DNA from: Heliocidaris erythrogramma
Taxonomy: Eukaryota > Echinodermata > Echinoidea > Camarodonta > Echinometridae
Assembly (NCBI GenBank): GCA_025617745.1
Contig: CM046863.1
Coordinates: 58,856,085 to 58,920,084, forward strand
DNA length: 64,000 nt
Direction of reading: 5' to 3'
Shown here: positions 1,121-40,986 of the stretch, piece by piece
Layout: each line of letters begins with the position of its first letter
Position numbering within the stretch: position 1 is the first letter of the stretch
The notes under the pieces: model-generated
What the model was told of the DNA's origin: nothing
Seen by the model: the letters and a program-made list of their open reading frames with translations, nothing else
Databases searched by the model: none
Made by a program: the position numbers and the translations under genes

Positions 1121-1125
1121 ACTTT

Positions 1126-3487: not shown

Positions 3488-3489
3488 AG

Positions 3490-4500: not shown

Positions 4501-4503
4501 TGA

Positions 4504-4772: not shown

Positions 4773-4789
4773 CGATGTGCTTATTCCTG

Positions 4790-5650: not shown

Positions 5651-5683
5651 CGTGAACCCGGACGCAACCTAGACGCCGTAATT

Positions 5684-9560: not shown

Positions 9561-9600
9561 TAAACTAACATGTTTTCTTCATAAATGGTGATTTCCACAG

Positions 9601-9860
9601 AACAATGGAGTCCGAGTTGATGTCACTTGCCAAACACGTACCACATGACAATTACGCAGAACTTTGTAACGCTCTTGGGTACTCCTTTGCGGAAAGTGAA
9701 AATGCCCGCGTTAAACATCTCAATAACTACAGTAAAGCTATGACGGAGATTCTCATCGAGTGGAAGACCAAACAAAAAGACATCACCCAATCTCGATCCA
9801 TTCTGGCAAGCAAGCTCCGTGAAGTGGATCTTGGAGAACTGGGTGAAAACTTATCCAAAG
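9601..9860 (+). CDS. NLR gene exon 1: Death domain
   Basis: The exon runs from an acceptor (TTTCCACAG at 9600) to a donor (CCAAAG|GTAAAA at 9861). The first Met is at 9605, so the acceptor implies a 5' non-coding or short upstream exon that I could not find. The 85 codons form one Death domain: a helix with LMSLAKHVP, then YAELCNALGYS, ending SILASKLREVDLGELGENL. Death domains pair with one another in apoptotic and inflammatory signalling complexes. The exon ends in phase 1, exactly what the 60-nt exon at 36720 and the NACHT exon need. Domain order Death-NACHT-LRR is common in the large NLR families of sea urchins and lancelets. Joining across a 27-kb intron is inference from phase and domain order. 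Confidence 0.75.
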
Positions 9861-10230
9861 GTAAAATGCTGCTCGAATGAAATTCATTGAAAATAATATT
9901 AGTTTGGTCAAACCATTAAACCAAAACCTAAATACCTGACATGAATGTACTTCAGGGTGTTTGTTTCTCTCATTATTTTGCAGAAAACAGTATTCATGTT
10001 TTGAGTTCATGCAACTCAATCTTGAAGTTTCAGGGGATATTCATTATCAAACTTTATTTATAACAGTTTTAGTACTTCAAGGGTACATCCGATTTCAAAA
10101 TGAATTTTTTTAAAGCAGTCAGACAAAACTATTTTGACGAAAATCAGATAACGTAAAAAAATACATTTCTACGTGTATTTCAGGAAAAAAAAAAGGTTTG
10201 CGGTACAACCATGTGAGTTGGAATAACTCC

Positions 10231-10263
10231 ACGTTCCGGTCAGAATGCTCTGGCCGTCGTCAG
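10231..10263 (-). ncRNA. Hammerhead-like hairpin, degenerate
   Basis: Minus strand reads CTGACGA, one unpaired base, a stem (GG-CAGA...TCTG-CC), then GGAACG where GAAACG is expected. The altered GAA core makes self-cleavage unlikely. Confidence 0.35.
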
Positions 10264-10753
10264 GAGAATAAGAAGAGCGAATAAATCAGCAGAATTTATT
10301 ATATGAAGCGGTAGAAATTCTACAGCTTCAAAACTTGTTTTTAATGTTAGGCAATTCACTTTTAAATGTCTTTGTGTGTGTAGAGAGACTTTAGGTTGTC
10401 AATAATAACCTTAGGTGATCTTTGGAGGTTTGCATGGTGGAGCTTATAATGTGGAGAAGGTTTACGGTTCACCATGTGTGTTGGTAGGAGGAAAGGGAAA
10501 ATAGGAAATTAGAAATGGATAGACGAGAAAGGATGACAAGAGAGAAAAAGAAGAAATATTCTTTCGTGAAAAGGACTGTAAACCAATAGGAAGGTTTACT
10601 GGTTCACCAGGTGTATGGATAGGTGAAGGGTGATGGATGATCTGTAAACCAGATGAGATGAGATGAGAAGACTTGGTAGATGATCGATGGATGAGTAGCG
10701 ATGGATTGAGTAGCGAAGGTTTGAGTAGATGAGGCTTGAGTAGGAGGTTATTC

Positions 10754-10787
10754 GACGTTTCGGACAGGTTGACTGTCCGTCATCAGG
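10754..10787 (-). ncRNA. Hammerhead-ribozyme-like hairpin
   Basis: Minus strand reads CTGATGA, then C, a perfect six-base stem GGACAG/CTGTCC with a short loop, then GAAACGTC. CTGATGA and GAAAC are the invariant hammerhead core segments, and GTC is the usual cleavage triplet. The one extra base between CTGATGA and the stem departs from the textbook core, so catalysis is unproven. Similar motifs mark Penelope-like terminal repeats. Confidence 0.5.
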
Positions 10788-11086
10788 AGTGAAGTGTGCT
10801 AGACGAGCGGCGGGGTTTTACGTAAGAATAACCTTGTTTTAACCTTGTTTTAAAAGTATGCACACAATTTGAATATATTTGTGAACAGGTCTATCGGCAC
10901 TCGTTGCAGATGAAATGTTAAATCAAGAACATGCTTGTCTATACTGATGAATTCGAATTCCAAAATGTTCGCGATCCGAAGCTCCCGTGGATTTGAATGC
11001 TCGTTGGTAAAACTCTATTTGAATAGAATGCGAAGTCTAGCAAAATGCACTCGCTTGCCCTATAAATAAAATCGAATGCTCATTTT

Positions 11087-11795
11087 AAGCCTCGATCGGT
11101 CACAAATACCATTAAGAACTGCTACGAACGCCATACGCACCATTTTTAGACCATTTCGTAAGATCTTCTCAAGAAGCTCGTACGAAACCATCGTTCGTAG
11201 ACCGTTCGTAAATTCGCAGCCTGGTCAATGGTCTTGTCCAAGATTTTCTTTCTTTCAACGTAGTTCGACCCCCCCCCCCCCTCTCTCTCTCTCTTCTTAA
11301 GGCAGCCGTACGAACGATTCTTGGCGTTTGTAAGGCGTTCGTAAAGTGCTCGTAAGGTACACAATTTGTGCAATTGTCGAGTTTTAGGGGTATAAATCCA
11401 AACGCACGAAGTTCAAATCCTCAAACTTTCAACAGTCACTGAATTTTCGACAGTACACGGCAGCGCCTTTTTTGCAACCCGACAAAATATACAAAAAGTC
11501 GTAAGATCTTCCTACGAATGACTTGAGAGTGCTGTGAGTTGCATGTACGACCACCTTGCGACAAGAAAAGTCGTAAGATGGCCGTAAGTCTGACGAAAGA
11601 ATAACTCAAGGCATTCTTACGCAAAACGTACGAACTTGCATTACCTAAAATCACTTCGTTTCTCAAGGTCTTCAGTTGTTCTTGCAAATTAAACGGCCGT
11701 AAGAAGCTATGCCCCATCTACGAATACGAACTTTTTACGAACACTGAGATGCGTACGGACGCATAGTTCGTACGAACCTTTGTGACCGTAGATTT
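11087..11795. mobile_element. CpG-rich inverted-repeat element, unclassified
   Basis: The left end GCCTCGATCGGTCACAAA (about 11090) matches the complement of TTTGTGACCGTAGATTTAGG (about 11780). The interior is unusually dense in CGTACGA/TCGTAAG words. It holds a poly-C/(CT) tract at 11268-11296 and no coding sequence. Target duplication was not established. Confidence 0.5.
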
Positions 11796-12499
11796 AGGCA
11801 ATTGAAATTCAATGTTGATCTTGACGAGCATTCGAATTCAAATGAAATCGAGCGACTGTGCATCAATTTGACTGTTGTTTTCATGAGTTTGACGAGGAAA
11901 ATCTATAATTTAAGCCTTAGTCACAACTGCCCGTACGTTTTTTCAGGACGCACGGTTTCTGCGTTTTTTCGGGGTTGGAAAAAACGTAGAGGTCCGTGGC
12001 AGTTCGCACAGGGAGTATAAGTAGTAGCGTGCTTGCGCGGGCTTCATACACAAGGAGCACGTATGCCTTGCAGTTAACGTGCGGCACGCAAGGCGTCAGT
12101 ACGCCTCAGTCGGAAATTTAATCGTGAGTGTAACGTGCAAATGCCGTGCGATTTGTATGTGCTCCGTGCAGATGACGCAAGGTTCACGTCCGTTAATCGC
12201 ACGTACACCGTACGTGTTGCAAGAACGTACGGGCCTGTTGCGCCACCCCTGATAGCAGAAAGTGTTAAAAAATGACGTGATATTTACGTCGTGGTTTTCG
12301 TCTTTTTTACGTCCTGTAATTACGTCAATAAGACGACAACTTGCACCAACGCAAGACGTCAAGAGGGCGTCTTATTTTGACGTCATCTCTACGTCTTGTA
12401 CACTGTAAAAACTAAAGTGCTACTTTTAGGGGCATGTATAGTGACTGCACCTGAAATGCTGTTGCAGTGTGCTAATTTACCAGCAAAAAAAAAAAAAAT

Positions 12500-12572
12500 G
12501 TGACCGTGGCGAGCCTCGAACCAGGTTCCGCTGATTGAGAGGCGCTGACGTTACCGATGGACTAACGAATGC
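12500..12572 (-). pseudogene. tRNA-like segment (Glu-like), minus
   Basis: A-box TAGTCCATCGG and B-box GGTTCGAGGCT are present with normal spacing, and the anticodon-loop region reads CCTCTCAA. The acceptor stem does not close, so this is a tRNA-derived relic and not a working tRNA. It may keep an internal pol III promoter. Confidence 0.55.
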
Positions 12573-12673
12573 TTCTTGCAATCCAGTTTAGTCATGGGAG
12601 TCAAGTAGATAACATGAACTATGTGGTGTCGTAAATTCACTATGTAACAATATGATCTGCTCTAAATCGTATA

Positions 12674-12745
12674 ATGTGAGTTAGTCTAGCGGTAATGCCA
12701 GCAATTCTCGATCAGCGGACCCTGGTTCGAAGCTCGCCCAAATCA
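12674..12745 (+). pseudogene. tRNA-like segment (Glu-like), plus
   Basis: A-box TAGTCTAGCGG (12682-12692) and B-box GGTTCGAAGCT (12724-12734), with ATTCTCGA in the anticodon region. It diverges from the minus-strand partner about 100 bp away. Confidence 0.55.
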
Positions 12746-13769
12746 TTTTTTTTAATGAATGTTTAGCAGTTTAAGGAGCCGGTCCAGCTCCCGTGAAAGT
12801 GCTGAAATAGCACGCTGTGTGCATTCAATAGCACTCTGAGTGCAGTCCCTATGCATGCCCTCAAAAAGTGCTATATACAGCACTTCAGTTTTTACAGTGT
12901 ACAGATGACGTCAAAATAAGACGTCCTCTTGACGTCTTGCGTTGGTGCAAGTTGTCGTCTTATTGACGTAATTACAGGACGTAAAAAAGACGAAAACCAC
13001 GACGTAATTATCACGTAATTTTTACCACTTTCTGCTATCAGGGACATTCACGCCGGTAGTAGGGTGAAAGCAAGATGAACGTACTAAAACCGTACGGCGA
13101 CAGTACGGTCGGCGGTGGATTTCCACCCTCTTAGCCCCACGTGTTCTCTTCTGACCCCTGCCTCTTGCTCCAGGCATTGTGATTCAAGAGTCAGTCCTGA
13201 TTTAGAAAATGTCTTGAAGAAACGTCGGACCTCCTGAAGACCCTGAAAATTCAGAGCGAAAGTGTGAGAACTCTGTTGCCCGCACGGTTTTTATACCGAC
13301 CCCAAATTGGCCGTACGTTGCACGCACGTGTTTGCATGCGCCGTGGGTGGGACACACGAAGCACGCAAGTCACATGCACGTTTTCAGCTATGATTGGATA
13401 CCCGCGTAACACGCACGTGGCCCGCAAGGAGCGCATGCGCACTTGCGTGACCATCACATGCGTGCCTCGTGAGTGCTGCCTGCGGTATTCGCGCGGTTTT
13501 TACCCCCAGCAAACGTGCGACCCACCCACGCTATTCGCACTACCCTCTTGCGGAGACTGAGTGTTCATTACGTCCTGTCCACGGGCTGCCTGTCGTAGCG
13601 AGAACGTACAAAATAATGTGCATACACATTTTCGGCCTACGGCTTTAGCGTGCTGTCTGCGAACTCGAAATTCCGTACGAACAACCTGCGTCCCCCTTGC
13701 GTTTTCCCAAATTTCTGCCCGTAAACCACCCGTACAAGCCCGTACGGGCAGTTGTGACTAAGGCTTTAG

Positions 13770-14368
13770 TTATTAAATTACGACAAACGAGAGGATTGAC
13801 CGCCAATATTATGTCACAATCGAACCACCAAATTGCCAATAAATTATGATATTCGCATAGATTAAGTGATCTCCTCTCAAAACATCCTATTATCTCTTAT
13901 TTCTTGTCTGATTTCTTGTTTAGAAATCACCAGCTTTGTATTTCTAATTTGTCTGCTTTTACACAAATCATCTTACTACAATGGTTGGATTGCACATTAT
14001 TTTTCTTCTGCGTTTTGTCGCTCGGAGCAGAACACAAATAATAGCATGTTGTAAATTGCATATTGTCATAGGTTCTCCAGAAAAAAAATATCATACCAGT
14101 TAATACTGTGTGTAGGCCGGAAGGGAGAATTGCCCGCCATTACATCACAGAGACATTATACGGATTCGACCGATTTGAAAAGTCCATAAGTGTGTACAGT
14201 GCGCCCCCCCCCCCCCCCCACCAAAAATAAGAGAAAAAACAAACAAAACAGAACAAAAACAAAAATAAACAACAAACAAAAAGCACGAAACCCTAGAGCA
14301 AAGGATTATTGTGACCAAAATATGTCCTCTATGACCGTAATATTCTATTTTTATAAGGTAGAAAAATT
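13770..14368. other. Spacer without recognised gene
   Basis: AT-rich, with a poly-C tract near 14204-14219 followed by an A/C-rich run. Open frames here are proline/lysine-rich artefacts of low complexity. Confidence 0.5.
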
Positions 14369-15631
14369 GGTACACCGTCGCTTGGTCTACCACCACTTGC
14401 TCCAATTATCAGTTCGTCGAACTCCACGTGGTCTAACTTCATTTTGTCTACAACCAGTTTGTCTACTTACCATTTCGTCTAATTTCCACTTGGCCTAAAC
14501 ACCAATTCGCCTAATACCCAGTTTGGCTAACCCCATTTAGTCTAAAACCCATTCGGGCTAATTTTCACTTCGGCTAATTTTCACTTCGTATCTGTATTAT
14601 GACGCCTTGGACAAACAGTGAATTTGCGCCCCCCCCCCCCCCTCCCTCCCCGAGTCAAATTATGTTATGCAAGGAAGCGAAGCGACCGAGCAGTAATTTT
14701 TATTTATTTTTTTATTTTTTTACCCTTCCACGGGGTTCCGTTATTCATCATCAACAACATTTTTTTTTTTACAAAAGATCGTACTTATAGGTTTTTTCCA
14801 TGTTTTGTCATGTAAATACTTAAACAATATAGTATCCATATAATATAACAAATATGCAGCCGCACAGCCGCGGTGTATTGGTTACTTTGACAAAATATAC
14901 GTTGTATATATAAAATACGTAGGCCTACAAAACAGATAAAGAGAACATAGACTCTCTGAAACATTTGGTCAAATGAAACCATTTTTTTTTCTTCTTTCTA
15001 ACAGATATCGGTATTTTTTGTTTTTGTTTTTGACCTCAGCTTAGGATAGAGTCCAGTCAAGAAAGCACCCCGGCCCCCTAGGCCCTTTCAAAAAGCTCTG
15101 GCCACAACCTGTCCAGGGATGGCCAACAAAATGACGCATAGTGTTGGTAGGTGCGTAGACGAAAAGGGAATAGCCCAACAGGCAATTAGCCTTAGTGATA
15201 ATTAGACAAAGTGATGTTTAGACAAACTGACATTTAGACCAAGTGACAATTAGACTAAATGGAAAATGGACTAAATGAAAGTTAGACCAACTGCACATTA
15301 GACCATATAAATGCTACGTAGACCAAAAGGATACTGGACCAAGTGGATTTTAGACCAACTAGTTTTAGACTGACTGGGAATTAGACAAACTGACATTAGA
15401 CGAACTGGTAGTAGACCAAGTGACAACAAAATAAAGTAGACGAAATGGTAATGAGACCAAATGGTAATTAGACCAAGTGATAATTAGCCCAAGTGGTCAT
15501 TAGACCTTCTGGTTATTAGACCAAGTGCAAATTAGACCAAATGAAGAGTGGACCAAAAGGGTTTAGCCCGAATGAAGGTAGCCCATCTGGAAATTAGACC
15601 CAAGTGATTTTAGCCCAAGCGTGCATAAACC
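14369..15631. mobile_element. Foldback element A with GTCTA-repeat arms
   Basis: Ends GGTACACCGTCGCTTGG (14369) and the complement of GGTTTATGCACGCTTGGG (15631). Each arm is a run of degenerate units of about 17 bp (xxTTGGTCTAATxxCCA on the left, its complement on the right). The centre of about 560 bp carries poly-C and AT-rich sequence. The flanks GAAAAATT (14361-14368) and GAAAGATT (15632-15639) match at 7 of 8 positions, an 8-bp target duplication. No transposase is present. Confidence 0.82.
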
Positions 15632-15678
15632 GAAAGATTCTGCTTTTAAATCATACATCTCTACGTACATGCCTTACC

Positions 15679-17983
15679 GGTACACCGTCGCTTGGTCTAC
15701 CACCACTTGGTCTAATTATCAGTTCGTGGAACTCCACGCGGTCTAACTTCATTTTGTCTACAACCAGTTTGTCTACTTATCATTTCGTCTAATTTCCATT
15801 TGGCCTAATAACCAATTCGTCTAATACCCAGTTTGGCTAACCCCAAATAGTCTAAAACCCATTTGGGCTAATTTTCACTTCGGCTAATTTTCACTTCGTC
15901 TATTTCCAAATAGTCTAACAGTCATTTTGTCTACAAGCCACATAGTGTAATTTCCATTTGGGCTACACCTACTTTGGCTAATACCATATGGTCTACCTAT
16001 CATTTGGTCCAATTCCATTTAGTCTAATAACCAGTTGGGCTACTTATCATTTAGTCTAACTGTCATGTGGTCTAATGACCATTTGGTCTACTGTCCAATT
16101 AGTCTAATAACCAGTTAGGCTACTTATCATTTGGTCTAATTTTCATATAGTCTAATGACCATTTGGTCTAATTACTATTTTATTCTTCTCGCCATTTAGT
16201 AGCAAGTTGAGAACTTAAAAAAATGAAACTTCAAAGAAGTCATCTACGTAAATGTGCATTAAAAGAATTATTCACCTTGTTGCTGCTTATATCAAGATCA
16301 ATCAATATCCCTACATTTTATATATTGATTATTTAATTTATGAAAATCGATTATTTAGTATTATTTGTTAGTGTTGGTTTGATAATCTGTTATTCATGTT
16401 TCTTATTTGATATCCGATGTACAAATGTTTGTGCAAGTAGTCAATAAAAGCTTGGGGCGGTGCCAGGGTATCTTCATAGGAGGGGCAAGACGACCCACAG
16501 ACTTGGGGTTTCAACGAACTGGGTACCCTTTTTTGGAAAAGGGGGAACTTAATAAAGGGTGAGGACAATAATGGAAAATGGCGTTTTCATACGTTGCTGT
16601 ACCCCAACATTGTATTTAACACACATTACATTTTAAGGATATATTTTCTAATCTTTGCATACTATGCAATTTTGCTCTACTCCTAACTTGCAGCAATTAA
16701 GCGACCAAAAATACTATGTCCTTGTTGAGTATGCAATTACTATTATTATGACTATTATCATTTTTATTATTATTATTATTATTAATATTATTATTTTTAT
16801 TATTAAAAAACGTAAATTAACTCGCTCGTTGGCAGGGGGCGCAATGCCCCCCCCCCCCCCCATCCTCACCTTTCCAAGCACCCCACAAGTCTCCTGCTAC
16901 CCACAGAAATGCCGCTTTTTATACTTGTTCACTGCCTTCTTTTTCTCTTTTTAAGGCAGTGGCGTATCTAGGTATTATGACGCCTTGGGCAAACAGTGAA
17001 TTTGCGCCCCCCCCCCCCTCCCCGAGTCAAATTATGTTATGCGAGGAAGCCAAGCGACAGAGCAGCAATTTTTTTTTTATTAATTTATTTTTTACCCTTC
17101 CACAAGGTTCCTTTATTCATCATCAACATGACAATTTTTACAAAAGATCTTAAATATGTTTTTTTTTCATGATTTATCAGCGTATAAGCGTATACCATTA
17201 TATAACAAAATATGCAGCCGCACACCGGTGTATTGGATAGTTTGAAAAAATATACGTTGTGTGCAATAATATATTAGCTACAAAACAGGCAAAGAGAACA
17301 TATAGACTCTCAGAAACATATTTTGAAGAAATGCTTTAAGATTTATCTTTGATATATACTTTTCCATATCATAATATATTTTGATAGCTGTCAAAACTTT
17401 TTCAAACCTTGGTAACTGACTTTTACATTTAGTTCAAAATATTACAGGGCTAGGGATGGCCAAAAATGACGCATAGTGTTGTTGGTAGGTGCGGAGACGA
17501 AAAGGGAATAGCCCAACAGGCAATTAGCCTTAGTGATAATTAGACAAAGTGATGTTTAGACAAATTGGCATTTAGACCAACTGACAATTAGACTAAATGG
17601 AAAATGGACCAAATGAAAGTTAGACCAACTGCATATTAGACCATATAAATGCCACGTAGACCAAATGGATACTAGACCAAGTGGATTTTAGACGAAATGC
17701 CTGTAGACCAGCTAGTTTTAGACTGACTGGGAATTAGACAAACTGACATTAGACGAACTGGTAGTAGACCAAATGACAAGAAAATAAAGTAGACGAAATG
17801 GTAATTAGACCAAATGATAATTAGACCAAGTGATAATTAGCCCAAGTGGTTATTAGACCTTCTGGTTATTAGACCAGGTGCAAATTAGACCAAATGAAGA
17901 GTGGACCAAAAGGGTGTAGCCCGAATGAAGGTAGCCCATCTGGAAATTAGACCAAGTGGTTTTAGCCCAAGCGTGCATAAACC
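15679..17983. mobile_element. Foldback element B, same family as A
   Basis: The same termini as element A, with left arm 15679-16190 and right arm about 17490-17983. The exact 8-bp duplication GCCTTACC flanks it (15671-15678 and 17984-17991). The right part of its centre (16960-17490) matches element A; the left part (16190-16960) is unrelated AT-rich sequence. The two elements are separate insertions only 47 bp apart. Confidence 0.88.
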
Positions 17984-17999
17984 GCCTTACCCATCAGTT

Positions 18000-18786
18000 T
18001 GAAAATGACATAAACACACTTGTACCAAACTTGGGTAAAAGCGTGAAAACGTTAGGATCACATGCATGAGCCCATGACCTGAAGGAAACATGAGCTGTAA
18101 AATATAATGAGATATCATGTGCTACTTTTGATAATGGGGGTAATGAGAATTCCCTCATCATAAAATAAAAGGATAAACGGCTTTATGTTGATGGTGGGGT
18201 AACAAAAGGGCTTAAGAAATGCTAAATGCAATCATTATGAACACCCATTTTTGCATTGTTCAGAACTGCCGCTACCCCCCCCCCCCCCCCTTTCTTTTAA
18301 GAACAGAGCAGACAGCAAGGAGATATTTTCATAGAAATGAAGTAAAGGGCATCTTCCATTGTCATCAAATGATATAATATGATATACATGTATATAAAGT
18401 GCAATAAGGGCAAGAGCATTTCAGATTATGCAATTTTCCACCTCAGGATGGAAACCTTTTCAAATAAAAAAAGGAAACATTTTCATTGCTCGATGGAAGT
18501 TTTTTGATTTGGGGAAATCCAGGGGTGTACCCCCCCCCCCCCCCCCTGGAACCCCCCTGGAACCCCCATACATTGGCAATGGGATTTTAAAAATGAGTAT
18601 TACAATTGAATGCATACCATCACACAGTAATGATAGTGGGAATTCGTTTGTCACTTGTTTTTTAATGCTTATAGGGCTACATCAGAAGCATGTTACAATT
18701 TGGGACAAATTTTCAAAACAATGTTGCTCCGTGGAGAATGTAAGGATAAATGCCATGAATGTATCATTTTAAAGCATATTATTTCT
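18000..18786. other. Spacer, no gene recognised
   Basis: AT-rich with poly-C tracts near 18276 and 18528. The open frame at 18428-18772 looks fortuitous. Confidence 0.5.
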
Positions 18787-18835
18787 TAAGAGTATAAGCT
18801 GATCTGTTGTCACACGAAGGAGCAAACGAGGGTTG

Positions 18836-18870
18836 CGACGTTTCGACTGCTAACTGCTAGTCTTCGTCAG
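18836..18870 (-). ncRNA. Hammerhead-like hairpin in Penelope-like tail (left)
   Basis: Minus strand reads CTGACGA, A, stem GACT/AGTC, then GAAACGTC. Core segments are intact, with one extra base before the stem. It lies about 205 nt downstream of the TATA box. Confidence 0.5.
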
Positions 18871-19074
18871 ACAATGTGGACAATAGTGTGTGTGTGTAAT
18901 TGGGTTTTTACAGACGTGTATCAATCAGATATGATTATTTACGTCTGGGACCGACCTTTAACGTCACCATCCGAAAGACGTGACTCAGTCTCGAACCTGG
19001 GTCCGCTGAATCAATTTATAACTTCCACTGGTAGCTGGATTACAGGCGCACGCCACAACGCCCAGCTGCAAGCG

Positions 19075-19135
19075 CCTTTTATAGCTAAGGGCGACGGAAC
19101 TGCCACGCTGCTATTGGTCCGTAAAACCAACCAAT
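19075..19135 (-). promoter_or_regulatory. TATA/CCAAT promoter in Penelope-like terminal repeat (left)
   Basis: Minus strand has TATAAAAGG (19083-19075) preceded within about 50 bp by CCAAT-box words (ACCAATAG and an inverted CCAAT). The same spacing occurs in the plus-strand copy at 34050-34126, which supports a pol II promoter of the element. Confidence 0.55.
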
Positions 19136-19274
19136 CAGAAACCGCGGACTGTGCGACCGGTGGGCAGGCTGCGGACGTCGGGGAAAACCCCGTCGGTGCT
19201 ACTGGCGGGCGAAATGCAGACGTCGGGCGGAGGGCAACGGTAGGGGGCGCATGTCGGCGGATGATGGGGAGCCA

Positions 19275-19499
19275 TTCCTCCGGGATGTCAATGCCGTTAT
19301 CTCTATCGGTGGCTTTCTTCTTCTTAGTGACGCGGTTAAGGAAGGAACGCGGGTATCCATTCGAAACAAGAGCGGAAGCGATGTGTTGTTTCTCAGGGGC
19401 TGTGCACAGGGGTTTGGAAACAATGCGCAATGCTCTGTCATAAAGACACTTAACTACCCCGCGCTTGACGGATTGGGGATGATGCAAGTCATAGGCCAA
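19275..19499 (-). pseudogene. Penelope-like RT C-terminal fragment
   Basis: Minus-strand frame reads HPQSVKRGVVKCLYDRALRI followed by ALVSNGYPRSFLNRV, the conserved end of Penelope-like RTs (VKRGVV... and NGYP). The upstream RT is missing. The frame then runs into the promoter-like block without an endonuclease. Confidence 0.75.
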
Positions 19500-19629
19500 A
19501 TACTGATCGGTGTGTGTGGGCTTTCTTTACACTGTGGTAGTGAGGCGGCCATCACTATCCCGGTGCACTGGTGTGTCAAGTAAGGCGATGTGGCTATTGT
19601 CTTCCATCTCCATATAATCCGGGAGCCAG

Positions 19630-23090: not shown

Positions 23091-23099
23091 GTTAATCTA

Positions 23100-23880: not shown

Positions 23881-23886
23881 TTTAAT

Positions 23887-25733: not shown

Positions 25734-25760
25734 GTTTTTGCTTCTTTCTTCTTCTTTTTA

Positions 25761-29614: not shown

Positions 29615-31440
29615 AATTATAATTATAACATACTATAATCATTAACAATCACACAAACCATAATCCACGTTGTTAAAAGGTACATATAGGAGTAAATACA
29701 TTACGTGCGTTAAATCAATCATTATTTTGCTTGTTTTACAGCGTTTGACGTCTAGATATCCCATTTATATGTAAAAAAAAAAGGAATAAGAAAAACAATA
29801 ATGAGTGTTGATTTGCACACTTTGAATGTCATTCTTTACATGGAGGATTGGGGGCGTCTGGCAGGTAGATCTCACAATATATATAATCATGATAATTTCT
29901 GGCAGTATCTATGTAAGTCTTGGCAAAGCTAATTCGTTTGTTTGTTTTTGTTTTTTTCTTTGTTCCCACGAACTTTCGTTTGCACAGGTCTGATCTCGCT
30001 CAAAATACAGGGGGTGTATATTAGTAACGTCTAACAGTCACTCTCCTCCACTTAAATCGTCTGGCAGTGGTCTAGCTCAATATTGGGGGTTGGGGACCTT
30101 TAGTGGCGTCTGACAAGCACTCCCCACCACTTAAAACGTCTGGCATTGTCCATTCATGTACATTGGGAATATGGCGAATCTTTTAATGTATATTTGTAAC
30201 GGTTTCGTTTCCAGCTGATCTAGCTAAATTTTTGGACCCCCTTTGGGGGCGTCTGGCGGGCACCCCCACCACCTAAAATGTCTGGCATTGCTCATTCATG
30301 TACCTTGGGACTATGGCGAATCTTTTGATATAGGTTTCTAAGGGTTTCCTTTCCAGCTGATCTAGCTCAATATTGGGGGTTGGGCACTTTGGGGCGTCTG
30401 GCAAGCACTCCCCACCACTTAAAACATCTGGCATTGTCATTACGTTATCCTTGTTTGTTTGTATTTATTTCCGTATTAAGAAAACCACATACATTTCATA
30501 AAATACAACGTATACATGAGCTTAAAAAACGGAGGATGACCCAAATTCAGCAGTATTTACAAAATGCCGCTGTTCTTCCTTGGGGTCCTACATAGCATTA
30601 GATATTAAAAATTATATCATACCACAATTATATAATTAGAAAAAACCCAAAAAAAGAGAAACAAAATAAAAATCCTTGGCGATATGGAGGCAAAATTTCT
30701 GGCGAGCGAAGCAAGCCAGAAAAACCGAGGCTCATGAGGCACGATTTCCTACTGAATTATGCATGAAAACGTGAATAGTTAGATAACCGCGGCGATCGCC
30801 CAGCAAATTGGCCAATGAAATCTTAAGGATTTCTTACTTCAGTTCTGGACTAGTCTATTATTTTTTGGAGGGATTACGTAAATCTCTTGCTCAAAATACA
30901 TTCACAGACAGGTCTGATCTCGCTCAAAATATAGGGGGTGTATATTAGTAACGTCTAACAGTCACTCTCCACCACTTAAATCGTCTGGCAGTGGTCATTT
31001 CTGCATCTTTGGACTATGGCGAATCTTTTGATATAGGTTTCTTAGGGTTTCCTTTCCAGCTGATCTAGCTCAATATTGGGGGTTGGGGACCTTTAGGGGC
31101 GTCTGACAAGCACTCCCCACCACTTAAAACGTCTGGCATTGTCCATTCATGTACCTTGGGAATATGACGAATCTTTTAATGTATATTTGTAACGGTTTCC
31201 TTTCCAGCTGATCTAGCTCAATTTTTGGACCCCCTTTGGGGGCGTCTGGCGGGCACCCCCACCACCTAAAATGTCTGGCATTGCTCATTCATGTACCTTG
31301 GGACTATGGCGAATCTTTTGATATAGGTTTCTAAGGGTTTCCTTTCCAGCTGATCTAGCTCAATATTGGGGGTTGGGCACTTTGGGGGCGTCTGGCAAGC
31401 ACTCCCCACCACTTAAAACATCTGGCATTGTCATTACGTT
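29615..31440. repeat. Inverted counterpart of the 19.6-20.8 kb block, duplicated
   Basis: 29615-29930 is the reverse complement of 20470-20760, and the 148-bp satellite follows in reverse orientation. The block from GGTCTGATCTCGCTCAAAAT is present twice (from 29984 and from 30912). The first copy also carries the 463-bp insert at 30448. Both copies end GGCATTGTCATTACGTTAT. Confidence 0.8.
30448..30910. repeat. 463-bp direct repeat of 32751-33211
   Basis: Nearly identical over its length to 32751-33211, from TCCTTGTTTGTTTGTATTTA to ATTCACAGACA. It contains the SINE-like insert described at 32757 plus Penelope-flank sequence, so it was copied after that insertion. Confidence 0.88.
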
Positions 31441-31880
31441 ATTCTTTTATTGCTTTTACCATTTTGTTTTCCATCTTTCATTATGTTACTGTTTATATTT
31501 ATTCTTTTTATCCTCTTTTTTTATTGCTTTCCATCTTCACTTTGTTATTCTTTGTTCCCTTTTATCATCTTCTCTTCCACCTTTCTTCATGTTTATATTT
31601 ATCTTTTTATGATTTTTCTCTTCTATCTTTCCTTATGTTACTCTTAATATCTTTATCCTTCTATCATTTATGTCTTTATCTTTCTTTATGTTATTCTTTG
31701 TTTTTATCCACTTATTTTTACTTTCCAACTTTCCTTTTGTTGTATTCTTTGTTTCCTTTCACTTTATTTTCTTCCATCCTTCCTACCCTTATATTCTCTC
31801 TTTATAGTTCATGTTTTTCTTTGCATTATCCTATTGTTTTCTTTATTCCCTTGTTTGTCGTTTTTAGCCTGAAAATGGGA
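31440..31880. repeat. Pyrimidine-rich low-complexity tract
   Basis: About 430 bp of T/C-rich sequence with recurring CTTTCNTTATGTTA-like words. Open frames through it are phenylalanine/leucine-rich artefacts. Confidence 0.7.
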
Positions 31881-31905
31881 AAAATCATACGAGATGGACT
31901 CTTTT

Positions 31906-32703
31906 TCAATTTGTCCCCTTGAAAGACACCTTCCTGAAAAATGTTCGAAAATTTCTACCAACGCGACGCGACGTTACCCGACTGTTTAGCAAAAGCCCAT
32001 CGAAAGAGACCATGATCTCGTGATCAAGTATGGTCTCGCTGCGCAAGAAATCAACAAACGCGGCAGAGTTGCAGACTGCATGCTGATTGTTACCAATCAA
32101 GGGTGAGAGAATGTCGGCTAAAAACTTAAAAGTGTTGTCAGCAAATGAACTCACACAAGGTACTATCGGGCGCAACGGGATCTCAGGTTTGTAAATTTTC
32201 GACAATCCATAGATTCTAGGCGGTTGCTTCTGTGAGGTTCTCAGCATACGGTATGTCGAATCATCGATATCACCATTCTTGTGAAAACCGCAGAGAATGG
32301 TCGCAGGCTTGCGGGAGAGACATTCGGTGGGGTCTTTCCGTAGAGCGCGGTAAGGACCTGAGCTGATCAAATCTGACATCTTATCACGGTAAGTAGAGGT
32401 GTCTAATACCACGCTAGCGCGGCCTTTGTCTGCTGGCAAAAACATAATCGAGCTGTCTTCCTTGAGCGACTTCAAGGCTTTGCGCATGCCAGGAGTGACG
32501 TTGGACTTAGGCGGTTCGGCTGAGGAGAGGATCGCATTGACCTCCCTGCGGACTGAGCCGACGGTTTCGGCATCACGGCACCGGACGGAAGATTCGACTT
32601 TGGCAATAATCTCAGCAGCAGGGATGCGCTTAGGAGCTATAGCAAAATTGAGCCCCTTTCTAAGTAAAGCGCTCTCGTCGGTAGTCAGCACACGCGCAGA
32701 CAA
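31906..32703 (-). pseudogene. Penelope-like RT N-terminal half
   Basis: Minus-strand frame of 265 codons in Penelope-like RT order: KGLNFAIAPKRIP, SIMFLPADKGRASVVLD, PPRIYGLSKIYKPEIPLRPI and LADILSPLIGN, then MVSFD, where motif A should continue. The sequence diverges at that point (GLLLNSRVT), so the catalytic core, including YVDD, is missing. It is a different subfamily from the 5.6-8.4 kb element. The upstream side (32.72-33.03 kb) is repeated inverted at 33.88-33.96 kb. Confidence 0.85.
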
Positions 32704-32756
32704 GTTGACAATCCGCCTAGCCTCTTGTCGAGGCCCTGGCGCTGTTGAAATCCTTG

Positions 32757-32972
32757 TTTGTTTGTATTTATTTCCGTATTAAGAAAACCACATACATTTC
32801 ATAAAATACAAGTATACATGAGCTTAAAAAACGGAGGATGACCCAAATTCAGCAGTATTTACAAAATGCCGCTGTTCTTCCTTGGGGTCCTACATAGCAT
32901 TAGATATTAAAAATTATATCATACCACAATTATATAATTAGAAAAAACCCAAAAAAGAGAAACAAAATAAAA
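32757..32972 (-). mobile_element. SINE/LINE-tail insertion with 7-bp duplication
   Basis: A 216-bp insert is flanked by ATCCTTG (32750-32756 and 32973-32979). Read on the minus strand it ends GGAAATAAATACAAACAAA, a retroposon-type tail. The inverted paralogue at 33928-33934 has a single ATCCTTG (as CAAGGAT), an empty site that proves the insertion. Confidence 0.8.
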
Positions 32973-33359
32973 ATCCTTGGCGATATGGAGGCAAAATTTC
33001 TGGCGAGCGAAGCAAGCCAGAAAAACCGAGGCTCATGAGGCACGATTTCCTACTGAATTATGCATGAAAACGTGAATAGTTAGATAACCGCGGCGATCGC
33101 CCAGCAAATTGGCCAATGAAATCTTAAGGATTTCTTACTTCAGTTCTGGACTAGTCTATTATTTTTTGGAGGGATTACGTAAATCTCTTGCTCAAAATAC
33201 ATTCACAGACAAGCACATTATGAAGAATTCGATCTCTAGCTTACAAACCATGGTAATTTGAAATAAGACAAATGTACATATTTCTTAAGTGATCATCATA
33301 TATTAACAAATAATGAAGAATGGGCAATAAAAGTCACCGTTGAACAATGGATGCATCTC

Positions 33360-33687
33360 CATCAATTCTGATAATTATGTAACCAAGGAGTTACCAGCAA
33401 CTTCACTGCCCGGCAAGGCCCCGGGGGATCCGCCTGGCGGCTGGCCCCACTAGCACCACTTTCACTCTCCATCCCTGGCTCACGGAGGTAATCAGCACAG
33501 AGCGGTAGCGCGTGAAAAATAACACTTTTTCCATAACCAGTAGGCAGATTCACAAAAACATCTTGTCCTTTAAGTGCAGATTTGATTGCATCAACTTGCA
33601 AATCTTTGAATCTTGTCAATCTTCAACATTCTAGCGGCATATTCAAATATCGTCATCACTCGTCGTGGAAGAAACGTTGAACGCCAT
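33360..33687 (-). pseudogene. RecQ-like helicase N-terminal fragment
   Basis: A start-like ATG at 33687 opens MAFNVSSTTSDDDI, then frame breaks lead to EYAARMLKID and RFKDLQVDAIKSALKGQDVF, followed by the Walker A LPTGYGKSVIF (about 33515-33547) and HALPLCADYL. This is the N-terminal motif 0/I region of RecQ-family DNA helicases. After CADYL the frame enters GC-rich unrelated sequence and stops, so motifs Ia-VI are missing. It is either a processed or transposed fragment or a broken first exon. Confidence 0.65.
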
Positions 33688-34049
33688 TTTGGGCTGCGAT
33701 TAATTAATATGTAAGAAATAGCGTGCAGTCGAGTCATGAATATTTAACATTACGTCATGGTAGCTCGCGCTTATTGGATGATTTTCACCGACCAAAATTT
33801 GGTCGGAATATTCGTCAAAACAATGAAAGACAAAAGATATTCAGATCGGGTGTCAAGAGGCCGTCGGCGCAAGCGCCTCGGTTTTTCTGGCTCGCCTCGC
33901 TCGCCAGAAATTTTGCCTCCATATCGCCAAGGATTTCAACAGCGCCAGGGCCTCGACAAGAGGCTACCCTCCGCCCAACGTCCGCATTTCGCCCGCCAGT
34001 AGCACCGCCCATCACCGACGGGATTTCCCCGACGTCCGCATCCCGCCCA

Positions 34050-34126
34050 CTGATTGGTCGATTTCACGGACCAATAGCAGCCCGTCAGTTCCGGCGCCCT
34101 GGGAACGCAGCTTACGCTATAAAAGG
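34050..34126 (+). promoter_or_regulatory. TATA/CCAAT promoter in Penelope-like terminal repeat (right)
   Basis: TATAAAAGG at 34118-34126, CCAATAG at 34071 and an inverted CCAAT (GATTGGTC) near 34052. Spacing matches pol II core promoters and is conserved with 19075-19135. Confidence 0.6.
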
Positions 34127-34683
34127 CGCTTGCAGCGGCGATTATAACTATATTGTTTCTATTATAACATTATAGAATTTTTATATAACCATTATATGAT
34201 TTGATTCAGGAATACCTCTTTGCCAGTCTCTATACTCATATCTAGCAGAGAACTGTGATAATATTTTTTTTTTCCTTTTTCAAAAGATAATCACTAGGTA
34301 CCAAGCCCATGATGTGTCACCACCTTTTTTATGTGCCACATCGTGGGCTGGATATCTTTCAAGCATTGTTTCAACTATAACTATTTTGTTTCTATTTTAA
34401 CATCATAGAATTTTTATATAAACATTATTTAAGTATCCAGATCCAAATCCAAATCTAAGATTACAGGCTTAAATAGTCATAATTGACTGGTATAAGCCTA
34501 TAAACAAAACAAAACAAAATAAACAAAGATTGACTGGGCGTTGTGGCGTACACCTGTAATCCATCTAACAGTGGAAGTTACAAACTGATTCACTGAGTCA
34601 CGTCTATCGGATGGTGACGTTAAAGGTCGGTCCCCAGGCGTAAATAATCATATCTGGTTGATACACATCTGTAAAAACCAAAT

Positions 34684-34710
34684 CACACACACACACACAC
34701 ACACACACAC
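34684..34710 (+). repeat. (AC)n microsatellite
   Basis: About 13 AC dinucleotides. The related tail at 18.89 kb has a short GT run at the same place. Confidence 0.95.
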
Positions 34711-34725
34711 GATTGTCCACATTGC

Positions 34726-34763
34726 CTGACGAAGAGTAGCAGTTATTAGCAGTCGAAACGTCG
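34726..34763 (+). ncRNA. Hammerhead-like hairpin in Penelope-like tail (right)
   Basis: Plus strand reads CTGACGA, A, GAGTAGCAG-type stem, then GTCGAAACGTCGC. Same position in the tail as the left copy at 18836. The stem is weaker here (GAGT opposite AGTC). Confidence 0.45.
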
Positions 34764-35299
34764 CAACCCTCGTTTGCTCCTTCGTGTGTCAACAGATCAA
34801 CTTATACTCTTATTGTACTACCACGATGATCAACATCTTCCGCACTATAGAGTACATGTAATTCAAAAATTTACGTTCGTGTATATAGAGTGGAGGGTCT
34901 AAAGTAAAGCTAGGCTTGTTGTGGATAGGCCCCATTTAATAAATAATTTACAGACATGTAGAAGAAAATAATAGTAGAAGGGAGAAAAGAGGAATTAAAG
35001 AAAGGAAGGAAAAGGAAGCTATAGGAAGGGAGGAACTGAACAGAAGAACGAAAACATTATATAACGTAGACAAAGATTGTCACACGAACGGGGACGCACG
35101 GGTACTCTACAAGACAGGAAATGATAAACAGACTTTATTGCAAGGGGATAATTATGCAGCTGTTATTTCAATGTAAAGATTTGTTAACCCTACGTCGCAG
35201 CATAGTAAACAATGTATAAATGAAGCAAGATAATAGAAGCCATGACTCACGATTACGTCATGCCCCATGACGTAATCGTGAGTGTACACATGTAGGTAG

Positions 35300-36235
35300 G
35301 GCACAGAAGACAAAAGGGGCACTTACCAAAAGGGGAAATAATACTATTAGAAAGAAAAAGGGGGCACTGCCCAGAAGTAATAGGGGCACCTAAAAACAGG
35401 CATTTATCAGAGGTGAATAGGGCACTTATCATAAGGAAAATTTGCACTATTAGAACGGAAAATTGGCACTAATCAGACGAAAACAGGGACACTTGTCGGA
35501 TTTCAAAGGGGACACTAGTCTTATCTGAGTTTAAAAGGGGCACTTATCAGAAGGTGAAAGGGCACTTATTAGAAAGAATAAGGGGCAGTCACGGGGAGAA
35601 AAAGGGTCACCTATCAGAGGGGGGAGAAAGGGGAACTTATAAGAAGGAGAAATTGTACTATTAGAACGGAAAATGGGCACTAATCAGACGAAAACAGGGA
35701 CACTGTCTTGTCGGATTTCAAAGGGGACAATTATCTGAACTGAAAAGAGGCACTTATCAGAAGGTTAAAAGGGCACTTATTAGAAGGAAGAAGGGGCAGT
35801 CATAAAAAGAAAAAGGGTCACTTATCAGAGGAGAAAAGGTGCACTTATAAGAAAGGAAATTTGTACTATAATTATGAACGGAAAATAAGCTCTAATTATA
35901 TAGACGAAAAACAAAGGCACACATTTCAAAAGGGGCAGTAATGTATATGAAGTTAAAGGGTGCTCTAATCAGAAGGTGAAAATGGCATTATCAGAAAGAA
36001 GAACGGGCGCAGTTATACGAAGGAAAAAGAGCACTTATCAGAAGTGAAAAGGACACTTATCAGAAGGAAAAATTACACGAAAAAGGGCAATCATATAGGA
36101 TTCATAAGGGGCAGTAATGTCTGAGGTGATGTCTGAGGTTAAAGGGCCACTTATCACAAGGTAAAAAGGGCACTATACGAAAAGAACGGGGCACTTATCA
36201 GCTATGAAAAGGGGCACTTTTGGGGTACTTGAAAA
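35300..36235. repeat. Degenerate minisatellite, AAGGGGCACTTATCAGAAGG
   Basis: About forty variably spaced units of 18-27 bp built on GGGCACTTATCAGAAGG. It has no open frame and ends about 480 bp upstream of NLR exon 2. Confidence 0.85.
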
Positions 36236-36719
36236 TGTAGGGGGCATTGTACCCCCGGCCCCCCGGAAGCACCGCCTCTGCCTAGTTGTCTTAGGCTTTA
36301 AACGAATAGTGAATGGAATAGTTTTAGTTGCTTCAGTAAAGTGACGGTGTAATATAGTAAATTGGAGTTAATTCAAGCTTCCATTTCTTTAAAATGTTAG
36401 TAATGTTCAGTTCGTTAGTAATGCTGATTTGTAAAGTAAGTGTTATGTAACATTTTCATATAATTATTATTATAATGCCAAAAGTTACAATATGCGAGCA
36501 GTATTTCAGTAAATTTTGAAACGATATTTCCTCTGTCTATTGTAGGTTCAAAAGCTTTAATTTTCATTACGCTGTGAAAAACAGCAATTGCACATAGGTA
36601 ACAATTATGTTTACAGTCCATTTAGATAAGATATGTTACTTGCAATATGACTCTCGCTTGTTTTAAAGATGTATTGCAATGAGAAGAACAAAGATAAATG
36701 AATTCTTGATCTCTTACAG

Positions 36720-36779
36720 GTGCATATCTACCAAAGAAGCAGGGACCATGTGACGAGAACTACATTGCATGCAACCCAG
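36720..36779 (+). CDS. NLR gene exon 2: 60-nt linker
   Basis: Acceptor CTCTTACAG (36711-36719), donor CCCAG|GTATAC (36780). In phase 1 it is open and reads AYLPKKQGPCDENYIACNP between split codons. It enters and leaves in phase 1, matching the Death exon before and the NACHT exon after, giving an in-frame Death-linker-NACHT protein. The other two frames were checked: one is also open, one stops. No domain is recognised; it is a spacer between signalling and ATPase modules. Confidence 0.6.
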
Positions 36780-37113
36780 GTATACTAACCAAGATATACT
36801 AATGTAACAACAGGGCAACAAATCACATAATTATGACGTCATGTTTATTTCAAATGTTGCCTTTTAACACGCATTTCATTGTGTGGAAATATAAGTTCCG
36901 TTTTATTTATAATTTCCAGTGAGTTTTGATTTTTTTAGTTCATTATCGTTCATTTACTACATAACAGATAGTGTGTAAGAGAGCTATACATTGGGAGGGG
37001 GGGGGGGGATTGATGACCGTCATTTGCCCAACTTCTTCACACAATATACTCTGACACAACATGAGTTAAGATGAAAGGTGAATGGTTTGTCTTTTGTGAT
37101 TGGATCGTTTCAG

Positions 37114-38702
37114 ATATCTACAGTGTGAAGATCTCAGAGTCCTTGACTGTTATGCAATGTTGTGAAAAATTGAAGAATAAGTATCTCAATACGTTATGCA
37201 AAGTCCCAATGGCTCCATGGGATCCACATAAGTATGCTGAGTTAAAGAAAATACATACAGTTGTCACTATGGTGAAAAAGGACGCAAGTGGACAAGAAAC
37301 TGGGGAGAAGCAGGTTCTTCAGGGATCTGTTGCTGAAATATTTTCAACGAAAGTAGACGGCATGTACCCTGTCCGAATCCTCATTTCGGCCCCCGCTGGA
37401 CGAGGAAAAACAACGGCTGTCGCTAAGATGGCTTACGACTGGGCCCACAGGATACAAGGATCCGCGATAGAACACCTGCCTCTCCTCTTCGTTATCAAAC
37501 TCCGAAATACCAGCCAGCAGACATCGATCGGTGAAGCGATCAAATCCCAGCTCTTAAGTGACGTTGGCGATCTTACACCAAATGGGCTCGAAAACTTCAT
37601 CAGAAATAATCAGAATATTTGCAGTATTATGTTGGATGGCCTCGACGAGTATGCCGGTATAAATTCAAAAGAGGATGAAAGGAGCAATATTGTCGAAGTA
37701 ATGCTCTTTAAAGAATACCCGCAGTGTCGAGTCCTTGTAACAACACGGCCTCACCTAGAGAACTTCTTTAATCAAGGGGAGATTGCAAGGGTGTACACAA
37801 AGATGTGGATAGAAGGATTCTCGCAAGAGAGCTCGAAAGAGTACATCGACAAGTTTTTTGTTTCGAATCCTTCTAAGGGACAAGGTCTTAAGGCTTACCT
37901 TGATGGCCAACCCCTGATCTATGAACTTGTGAAAACACCTCTATTTTGTCTCATGGTCTCTCATTTGTGGAGCAAGGGACGACTGGACAAGGATACCGCA
38001 ACCCAGACAGAACTCCTGGACAAAGTGAATGAATTAATGATGCACCATGCCAACGCCCGTTCACAGTCAGGAGCACAGTTCACATCAGATGAATTAAGCG
38101 CAATAATGTGTAGCTTAGGGGAGATTGCTCTAGCAGGTTTACTCGACGATGCTAAAAAGCTGGTCTTCACACCACATGATTTCCGAAGAGTTCCAGCTAT
38201 CCTTGAAAGCGCATGTGAGCTTGGGATAATATCCAAGACGACTGTTACTTCAGAACACCTTTCTCAGTCCCATGAGACCACTTCTACTATCATCGAGTTT
38301 TATCACAAACTCGCGCAGGAGCACTCAGCTGGAAAATATCTAGCTGCTGAATGGAAGAAATGCAAGAAGAGATTCTGGCCAAGGAAGACTTCTAAGTTAG
38401 ACACAGTACTGAAGAAGAAAGAAGCAAACATCGATGACTATGAGCATCTCATCAGATTCGCTGCTGGCACGGATAGAAGCCTCTGCATAAGAATAATGGA
38501 GGCTCTTCTTGCCAACGGATACTTGGATGAGAGCGAGCGATATCGTATTCTCTTTGACTGCTCATCAGAGACCAAGGGTACTGAAGGAAGCGTGTCTTCG
38601 TTGGTTCAAAGATGTGTAACTGCACAAAGTATTGTTCTGAAGTCTCCAACTGTCTACACAGTTGTTGGAATGCAGAATCTTCCACAGCAACTGAAGCTTC
38701 AG
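37114..38702 (+). CDS. NLR gene exon 3: NACHT ATPase domain
   Basis: Large exon from acceptor GATCGTTTCAG (37113) to donor CTTCAG|GTATGT (38703). It has 529 full codons, entered in phase 1 and left in phase 0. After a helical lead-in (MQCCEKLKNKYLNTL) comes the NACHT domain: Walker A APAGRGKT (37389-37412), a PLLFVIKLRN strand, Walker B IMLDGLDEY (37626-37652) and sensor-1 VLVTTRP. The winged-helix region and the conserved FYHKLAQEHSAGKYLAAEW follow. NACHT ATPases oligomerise on ligand sensing to gather Death-domain partners in the cytosol. All nucleotide-binding residues are present and the exon has no stop or frameshift, so it looks functional. The frame is also open for 14 codons upstream, which could mislead a start call to 37071; the splice phase argues against that. 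Confidence 0.88.
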
Positions 38703-38865
38703 GTATGTGGTGTGAATACTTCCACCTCCCGTCACTTAGACAAATAATTAGCATGATATCACATGTAAATTCCTTAAGGGGATTTCAAGTATTAATTTCT
38801 CATTTTTTTACAGCACTGCGATCGTCTACACCAATGAAATGAATATACATGTATACGTATTTTAA

Positions 38866-39806
38866 AGATCACATTGCAAGAAAATTCCATCAAAATAAAT
38901 ATTGGCTTAATAATTATTATTGCATAGATGGCATAAATTATACAAAGTTATCCAAATTCAACGCTTTGAAACATTTGAATTAATGATTATTATCAATTAT
39001 AAAACGGTAAAATACAGCCCCCGATATAGCAGCTGAAGAGCTCCTTGAACGCTGCTGAGATGTGTGACGACACACCAGTCCTGTCTCAGCAGACGATGTC
39101 CCATAACATCTAACACATTTTTCAGTGCCTGTTTTGTCATCTCCTCTTCACTTATTTCTCTTACTTGACTAGCGTCAGTCTTAATGTTAGTCTGTTAAAT
39201 TGCCTCACTCTTTACTTCGTGTATGGTATTATTTTGATGAAAAATGCAGCGTTAAAAAAATAAAAGAATCAGTCACTTGTAAACAAAATAAGACGCCATT
39301 GTATTTTCAGCTGCTTGCACCGGGGCATGTTCGGCGTTTCAAGAGGGAACGAATACAATCTGTGATGTTATTCGGAGGGCTTTTCAATTTGAAAGTGGGG
39401 TTTATTTCATTGATAATTGACCCTTCTCCTGTGTATTTACTATCAAACGCTTTTAGTTATCAGAATCAGTTCACTTTCCCTTTTAGAATGGTGTGAAATA
39501 AGGTCATGTTAAATATACCAAACTCTTTATAATTTGATAAATAATTGCATTGCAATTACGTTCATTCATTATAGGACGTCGTCTGCTTAAGCAGGATCGA
39601 TCCCTTGTGTGACGACATCAAAACATCGCTATATTTCTTGCGAATCCTCGGATATTCCAGATGCTTAGAAGAGCTTTTATTTATGTTGTTTTTATAATCA
39701 TCAGATACGCAGTTGACATAAAACCTATACGATTGCCATCTGTAAGCTTCCCAGTTTCTAGTGATACATTAATTGCCATATTTGTGATTTTCTTGCAATG
39801 TGATCT
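38866..39806. mobile_element. TTAA-flanked DNA element (copy 1) in NLR intron
   Basis: 941 bp with inverted ends AGATCACATTGCAAGAAAAT and TTAA duplications at 38862-38865 and 39807-39810. TTAA targets belong to piggyBac and Kolobok; an AG start rather than CCC favours a Kolobok-like relative (inference). It is non-coding. It lies between NLR exons 3 and 4. An inverted copy is at 57570. Confidence 0.85.
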
Positions 39807-40462
39807 TTAAATCACAAGACAGATATCCGTAGAGAACGTGCAAGAGTCGACATATATAGATATAGATATCGATGTTATACTTATTTAGCGTTAGATTCAT
39901 CCTGTGCCGTTGAGCACATTGGGCAGGAAGCAAAATACTGGGTGAGAGAAAATTAAATGGCACACATTTATCGAAAATACATCGGAATGTACACTCGTTA
40001 AGGAGAGGACTGGATGGGCGATATCCAGATGGGAAACTACATGAAACGTAATGTCTAGAAGGAATGCACACTATCATCACTAGCCGGAATTTGACACGTT
40101 GACTACTGATTTTTCTAATTCCCGTAGGATTAATACAATATGGCCCACACTGTTCCAGTAGCCAATGGGTTACGTGTATTCTCTGATTTTATTTTTGCAT
40201 TACTATTGATAAACCGCGATTAGAACAGGCTGCAAAGAAATATCCTTCCATCAACTTTTAGCGCAGACAATAATCTTTCCTTGCTGCTCTCACTATACCC
40301 TGTTATTTCACAAAGGTCTTATTAAGCACTTTCCTATCATGTTACTTCACTTTATTAAAAATAAAACCCCAGTTAATTCTATTTTGCCGTATCTATATCT
40401 AAATAAAAACCAAACTGCATAATGTTTGTTATCTCTCATTCTCTATCAACTATTAAACACAG

Positions 40463-40986
40463 ATTAGAGAAGTTAAATTCGAGGGGTCTACTATGACTAC
40501 AGACGTGACGAGTGGGTTATGGTCCTGTCTCGCATCATTTTCGACGCTTCATACTCTTGCCATCACCGACTCCTCTCTCAGTTTTCAATCATCTCCTCCT
40601 AAGCTTTCATCCGTCACAAAGCTGATCGCCACGAAATTGATGTCACAGAGCTACGAAGGCCTGATCTCATCGTTACCTGCCTTGAAAGAGATCGATGTCA
40701 CTATTGATGATGTAGAGAGAGACACAACTCATATTACGGCCTCCAGGCCTATGGGGCACAGCAGGGATGAGCATCTTGCTGTACATATCAAGCTACAAGC
40801 CTCGTCATCACTTTCAACAGAAGAGAAGACTGAATCGGGAGCGACGATTGCAACGGTGGGTCTTCTGGTCAGGGAACAAACCCCAAACCGACAATGCCTA
40901 CGTGTTTCCGGTCAGAAGGGCAGGGATGAGGAAGCCTTGGTTGAACTCTTCGGCAAGTCAACACAACTATCTTCATTGAATTTGGA
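40463..40986 (+). CDS. NLR gene exon 4: start of LRR region
   Basis: Acceptor ATTAAACACAG (40462), donor TTTGGA|GTAAGT (40987). It enters in phase 0, as exon 3 requires, and leaves in phase 2 after 174 codons. It contains leucine-rich-repeat-like strands (FSTLHTLAITDSSLSF; LSSVTKLIATKL; ISSLPALKEIDVTI) and ends in a clear LRR start, STQLSSLNL. LRRs in NLR proteins are the ligand-sensing and autoinhibitory part. The open donor means more LRR exons must follow; none is recognisable before the window ends. The possibility that later exons fall in the 500-base gap at 43716-44215 cannot be excluded. Confidence 0.75.

What the first reader, a model, noticed from the sequence alone, without database searches (positions are those of the whole stretch)
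9601..40986. Split Death-NACHT-LRR immune receptor gene reconstructed by splice phase
Seen: four open segments with good acceptors and donors whose phases chain exactly (1, 1-1, 1-0, 0-2), in the domain order Death, linker, NACHT, LRR. Known: NLRs of this order are expanded in sea urchins and lancelets. Inference: they form one intact gene with a 27-kb intron and more LRR exons downstream of 40986.
Basis: partly seen in the sequence, partly recalled or inferred. Interest (0 to 1): 0.75.

Follow-up and report, generated by a model that had tools for sequence, protein, structure and literature searches.

The report
Probable Death-NACHT innate immune receptor gene
This stretch of an animal genome holds the exons of what is most likely one ordinary NOD-like immune receptor gene with a Death domain, a kind already described in sea urchins; its splicing and its far end remain unproven.

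Summary
The four segments, splice dinucleotides and phases (1, 1-1, 1-0, 0-2) are as described; the joined 809-codon frame has no stop. NACHT is certain: Pfam 1.4e-15, NLRC4 2.4e-9. Pfam finds no Death domain and Foldseek no match, but a home-made profile of seven solved Death domains gives 18.1 bits, 0 of 3000 shuffles as good, best of 707 window ORFs. The LRR label is weak: LRR_14 below cut-off; 89 of 3000 shuffles equal it on an LRR profile. The linker is not distinctive: 5 candidates with sites at least as good, itself included, in the 27-kb gap. No further LRR exon was recognised on the + strand to 64000, but these methods barely see exon 4 itself, and a 500-N gap lies there. 'One intact gene with more LRR exons' therefore goes beyond the evidence. 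Death-NACHT(-LRR) receptors (NLRD) are already described in sea urchin, amphioxus and sponge (PMC11508797, passages). A probable new member of a known kind; low interest.

The parts
9601..9860 (+). Exon 1: Death-like domain, ATG at 9605, ends in phase 1
   Evidence: Splice ends and phase; 18.1 bits to a profile of seven solved Death domains, 0 of 3000 shuffles as good; its ORF (17.4 bits) is first of 707, next 5.8; codon score positive in frame, negative in the other two. Pfam: none.
9861..36719 (+). Proposed intron 1, 26,859 nt, rich in repeats
   Evidence: 42% of it matches elsewhere in the window by self-BLAST, matches of 100 nt or more; a DEAD-helicase fragment lies on the other strand at 33365-33622.
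36720..36779 (+). Possible linker exon 2, 60 nt, phase 1-1
   Evidence: Splice ends and phase; 5 phase 1-1 candidates of 30-300 nt with sites at least as good in 9861-37113, this one included.
37114..38702 (+). Exon 3: NACHT NTPase and following region, phase 1-0
   Evidence: Pfam NACHT 1.4e-15; NLRC4 2.4e-9 in PDB sequences, residues 88-454 of the exon; Walker A at 37389, Walker B at 37626, TTRP at 37740.
38703..40462 (+). Intron 3, carrying a repeat (38896-39794)
   Evidence: The repeat is 94% identical, inverted, to 57582-58480.
40463..40986 (+). Exon 4: possible LRR region, phase 0-2
   Evidence: Open for 174 codons; Pfam LRR_14 E 0.043 whole, 0.011 for its first 96 residues, 13 and 15 bits against a cut-off of 40; 89 of 3000 shuffles as good against ribonuclease-inhibitor repeats.

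Best explanation
These are exons of one NOD-like receptor gene of the Death-NACHT-LRR type (NLRD) of a marine invertebrate, probably an echinoderm. The long first intron and intron 3 were enlarged by repeated, probably mobile, DNA. By analogy with known NLRs, the C-terminal region would sense a ligand or hold the NACHT NTPase closed; nucleotide exchange and oligomerisation would then cluster the Death domains and recruit Death-domain partners. Shown: the frames, splice ends, phases, NACHT domain and a Death-like exon. Inferred: that they are spliced together, the LRR identity, the species group and all signalling steps.
For: Phases and open joined frame; NACHT and NLRC4 relationship; Walker A, Walker B and TTRP motifs in order; Death profile against shuffles and window ORFs; in-frame codon score of exons 1 and 4 (their ORFs rank 6 and 5 of 107 ORFs of 80 or more codons without N); each exon found once in the window, next-best tblastn E 0.33 or worse; NLRD or Death-NACHT in sea urchin and amphioxus in the literature (passages). 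NACHT on the largest exon with other domains on single exons is also the layout of a zebrafish NLR family (PMC4852459, passages).
Against: Pfam and PDB sequence search find no Death domain; the single-sequence model has one long helix (residues 28-73) and Foldseek lists 9 matches, none at E <= 0.001 and none a Death domain. Singly, RIPK1 shows no likeness to exon 1 (1106 of 3000 shuffles as good). LRR support is weak; the 60 best of 73 PDB matches of exon 4 are growth factors, best E 0.17, and the longer of two LRR patterns does not hit exon 4; its structure model is unusable (mean pLDDT 33.4). Three ORFs not part of the model score as well as or better than exons 1 and 4 on codon use. 26.9 kb separate exon 1 from exon 2. 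No stop-bearing 3' exon was identified. No transcript was available, the genome is not held, and no relative was confirmed in viral or prokaryote contigs.
Confidence: 0.62

Rival explanations
1. The Death exon belongs to a different gene or makes a short Death-only protein, and the NACHT exon starts its own gene, for example from the in-frame ATG at 37071, giving a NACHT(-LRR) receptor without Death.
For: ATG at 37071 is in frame with no stop before the NACHT; exon 1 read past its donor stops after five more residues and ATTAAA stands at 9915; 26.9 kb of repeat-rich DNA lies between.
Against: The acceptor at 37114 is among the best 8.4% and the donor at 9860 among the best 4.0% of scored sites; phases 1-1 agree; the sole clearly Death-like ORF is on the right strand and upstream.
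Confidence: 0.2
2. The locus is a degraded or truncated NLR: the 3' LRR exons were lost or replaced by mobile DNA, so no full receptor is made, or a short one ends at the TAA after 40987. This overlaps with the best explanation.
For: No further LRR exon recognised on the + strand to 64000; TAA follows directly if the donor at 40986 is not used, with the nearest polyadenylation-like signal at 41533; repeats surround the exons.
Against: All four exons are open and score positive in frame; the methods that found no further LRR exon barely recognise exon 4 itself, so their silence is weak; exons may lie in the 500-N gap or beyond the window; the donor at 40986 is among the best 3.4%.
Confidence: 0.25

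Closest known systems
NLRD (Death-NACHT or Death-NACHT-LRR) of sea urchin, amphioxus and sponge (PMC11508797, passages)
   Same: Order of Death-like then NACHT then possible LRR.
   Different: LRR region and splicing not confirmed here; the sequences of those genes were not available for comparison.
NLRC4 (solved structures 3jbl, 4kxf)
   Same: Residues 88-454 of the NACHT exon align.
   Different: NLRC4 carries a CARD, not Death (its PDB name gives CARD; architecture recalled).
Zebrafish NLR-B30.2 family (PMC4852459, passages)
   Same: NACHT on the largest exon, other domains on single exons.
   Different: No B30.2 domain found on the + strand downstream; no Fisna match in the NACHT exon.

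Membership tests
NLR with Death domain (NLRD) | NACHT NTPase domain | tested here: met
NLR with Death domain (NLRD) | N-terminal Death domain | tested here: inconclusive
   Met with a home-made profile; not found by Pfam, PDB sequence or fold search
NLR with Death domain (NLRD) | C-terminal leucine-rich repeats (present in some described members, absent in others) | tested here: inconclusive
   LRR_14 below cut-off; 89 of 3000 shuffles as good
NLR with Death domain (NLRD) | All domains in one transcript | not testable with these tools
   No RNA data; phases agree

The most novel reading that the evidence does not exclude
The 60-nt phase 1-1 exon is an optional cassette, so that one gene makes receptors with two lengths of Death-to-NACHT hinge and, through the ATG at 37071, a Death-less form too.
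Probability: 0.08. Interest if true: 0.35.

Novelty: new member of a known kind. Interest (0 to 1): 0.18.

Why it matters
If transcribed as proposed, it adds one receptor to a large known family and illustrates how repeated DNA can stretch an NLR gene so that automatic annotation may split it. It does not change what is known about these receptors.

Tried and rejected
Pfam with max E 10 on the whole and a trimmed exon 1: no Death. AlphaFold on the LRR exon alone: unusable, mean pLDDT 33.4. AlphaFold on exon 1: mean pLDDT 83.3, pTM 0.49, but one merged helix, and Foldseek without a useful match. Relatives of the NACHT exon in viral and prokaryote contigs and of exon 1 in viral contigs: none confirmed. 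The window's own genome is not held. Rfam (gathering threshold) and tRNA scans: nothing. Two LRR patterns: the short one hits exon 4 once but also many places on both strands; the longer one hits 4 places, none in exon 4. A profile of ribonuclease-inhibitor repeats gave no convincing LRR exon among 1896 ORFs of 22 or more residues without N; the best, 8.6 bits, is a 24-residue ORF at 52765, and the ORF of exon 4 is not among the 15 listed. Pfam on + strand stretches: three frames of 40987 to about 53986 and of 54000-64000, but one frame only of 1-14999 and of each half of intron 1. The minus strand was scanned by Pfam only for four chosen ORFs. The splice weights are recalled approximations. 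The echinoid assignment rests on recalled resemblance to sea urchin NLR sequences and was not tested. Two papers were not held. Paper searches were seen as listings; five papers were seen as passages.

Full report
Observation. The four segments exist at the stated places. Exons 9601-9860, 36720-36779, 37114-38702 and 40463-40986 are bounded by AG and GT, and joined from the ATG at 9605 they give 809 codons without a stop. On a splice model with weights recalled from memory, the four donors fall in the best 4.0, 7.4, 0.2 and 3.4% of 3345 scored GT sites; the acceptors in the best 22.8, 3.9, 8.4 and 22.8% of 3498 scored AG sites. The phase chain by itself is modest evidence, about 1 in 27 by arithmetic.

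NACHT. The third exon is a NACHT domain beyond doubt: Pfam NACHT 1.4e-15, NLRC4 at 2.4e-9 and NLRP3 at 3.9e-6 among solved structures, and Walker A APAGRGKT, Walker B IMLDGLDE and TTRP in order.

Death. The first exon is not recognised by Pfam even at E 10, nor by PDB sequences. I therefore built a profile from seven solved Death domains (FADD, ankyrin 1, 2 and 3, RIPK1, TNFR1, CRADD; letters checked). The exon scores 18.1 bits against 13.4 for the best of 3000 shuffles; its whole ORF scores 17.4 and is first of 707 ORFs of at least 40 residues without N, the next scoring 5.8. Singly, four of the seven domains (ankyrin 1 and 3, TNFR1, CRADD) beat all 3000 shuffles; FADD is matched by 16, ankyrin 2 by 33, and RIPK1 shows nothing (1106). 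Three of the seven are ankyrins, so the profile is not broad. The single-sequence structure model merges several helices and Foldseek found 9 matches up to E 10, none a Death domain. I take the exon as a divergent Death domain, likely but not proven.

LRR. The fourth exon looks like an irregular LRR region by eye, but LRR_14 scores 13 and 15 bits against a cut-off of 40, 89 of 3000 shuffles score as well against ribonuclease-inhibitor repeats, the longer of two LRR patterns misses it, the 60 PDB sequence matches shown are growth factors at E 0.17 or worse, and its structure model is unusable.

Linker. The 60-nt exon is open, but 5 phase 1-1 candidates of 30-300 nt with sites at least as good lie in 9861-37113, itself included; 2 of them are 40-80 nt long. 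Its nearness to the NACHT exon (334 nt) favours it. Because it is 60 nt with equal phases, skipping it keeps the frame, so phase cannot tell whether it is used.

Downstream. Pfam on three + strand frames of 40987 to 64000, with X at stops and a break of about 15 bases near 53986-54002, found Helitron-like, PIF1 and overlapping AAA domains, a sub-threshold endonuclease and two chance matches. The LRR profile found nothing convincing among 1896 ORFs, but the ORF of exon 4 is not in its list of 15 either, so these searches could miss real LRR exons of this sort. A 500-N gap lies at 43716-44215. The donor at 40986 is followed by an in-frame TAA if unused. Pfam on intron 1 covered one of three + frames for each half and found nothing; the tblastn and Death-profile scans covered the whole window.

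Coding signal. With codon usage trained on the NACHT exon, the Death, linker and LRR exons score 0.113, 0.16 and 0.087 bits per codon in frame; the other frames are lower, five of six of them negative. The ORFs of exons 4 and 1 rank 5 and 6 of 107 ORFs of 80 or more codons without N. This is helpful but not distinctive: ranks 2 to 4 are ORFs outside the model, two of them over tandem repeats (55009-55263 and 2041-2430) and one at 33818-34063 on the minus strand. By self-BLAST with matches of 100 nt or more, introns 1 and 3 are 42% and 51% repeated in the window, the upstream 18%, the downstream 42%, and the exons not at all (a 60-nt exon could not show up). Intron 3 holds a repeat 94% identical to 57582-58480.

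Comparison. PMC11508797 (passages) describes NLRD, Death-NACHT or Death-NACHT-LRR, in sea urchin and sponge, and Death-NACHT-LRR in amphioxus. PMC2575513 (passages) notes direct Death-NACHT combinations in amphioxus, sea urchin and Nematostella. PMC12909245 (passages) says Death-domain families dominate in sea urchin and amphioxus. PMC13043383 (passages) gives more than 200 NLR genes in sea urchins, many with NACHT and LRR and some with CARD-like domains; the passages seen do not mention Death. In a zebrafish NLR family the NACHT sits on the largest exon and other domains on single exons (PMC4852459, passages). The finding fits this known kind.

Verdict. A probable NLRD gene, ordinary for such a genome, with Death likely, LRR unconfirmed, linker possibly optional, and 3' end unknown.

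Noticed in passing
44562-48419 (+): Helentron-like mobile element: Helitron_like_N (1e-9), PIF1 helicase (8.4e-27 for its ORF) and a sub-threshold endonuclease match in order, just downstream of a 500-N gap at 43716-44215. The name Helentron is recalled.
   Followed up: partly
6840-7802 (-): Two reverse-transcriptase-like ORFs (RVT_1 8.9e-6 and 0.018, both below cut-off); a Penelope-like origin is recalled, not tested.
   Followed up: partly
31909-32778 (-): Open frame of 290 residues inside proposed intron 1 with no Pfam family; it looks Penelope-like by recall only.
   Followed up: partly
33365-33622 (-): Fragment of a DEAD-box helicase (5.1e-6) inside the proposed intron 1.
   Followed up: no
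38896-39794 and 57582-58480: A repeat of about 900 bases, inverted and 94% identical, one copy inside intron 3.
   Followed up: partly
58502-63249: Tandem-like direct repeat: 60302-63249 is 91.8% identical to 58502-61452.
   Followed up: no
2171-2389: Array of 5.2 copies of a 42-base unit, 97% matches, inside an open minus-strand frame, 2041-2430.
   Followed up: no
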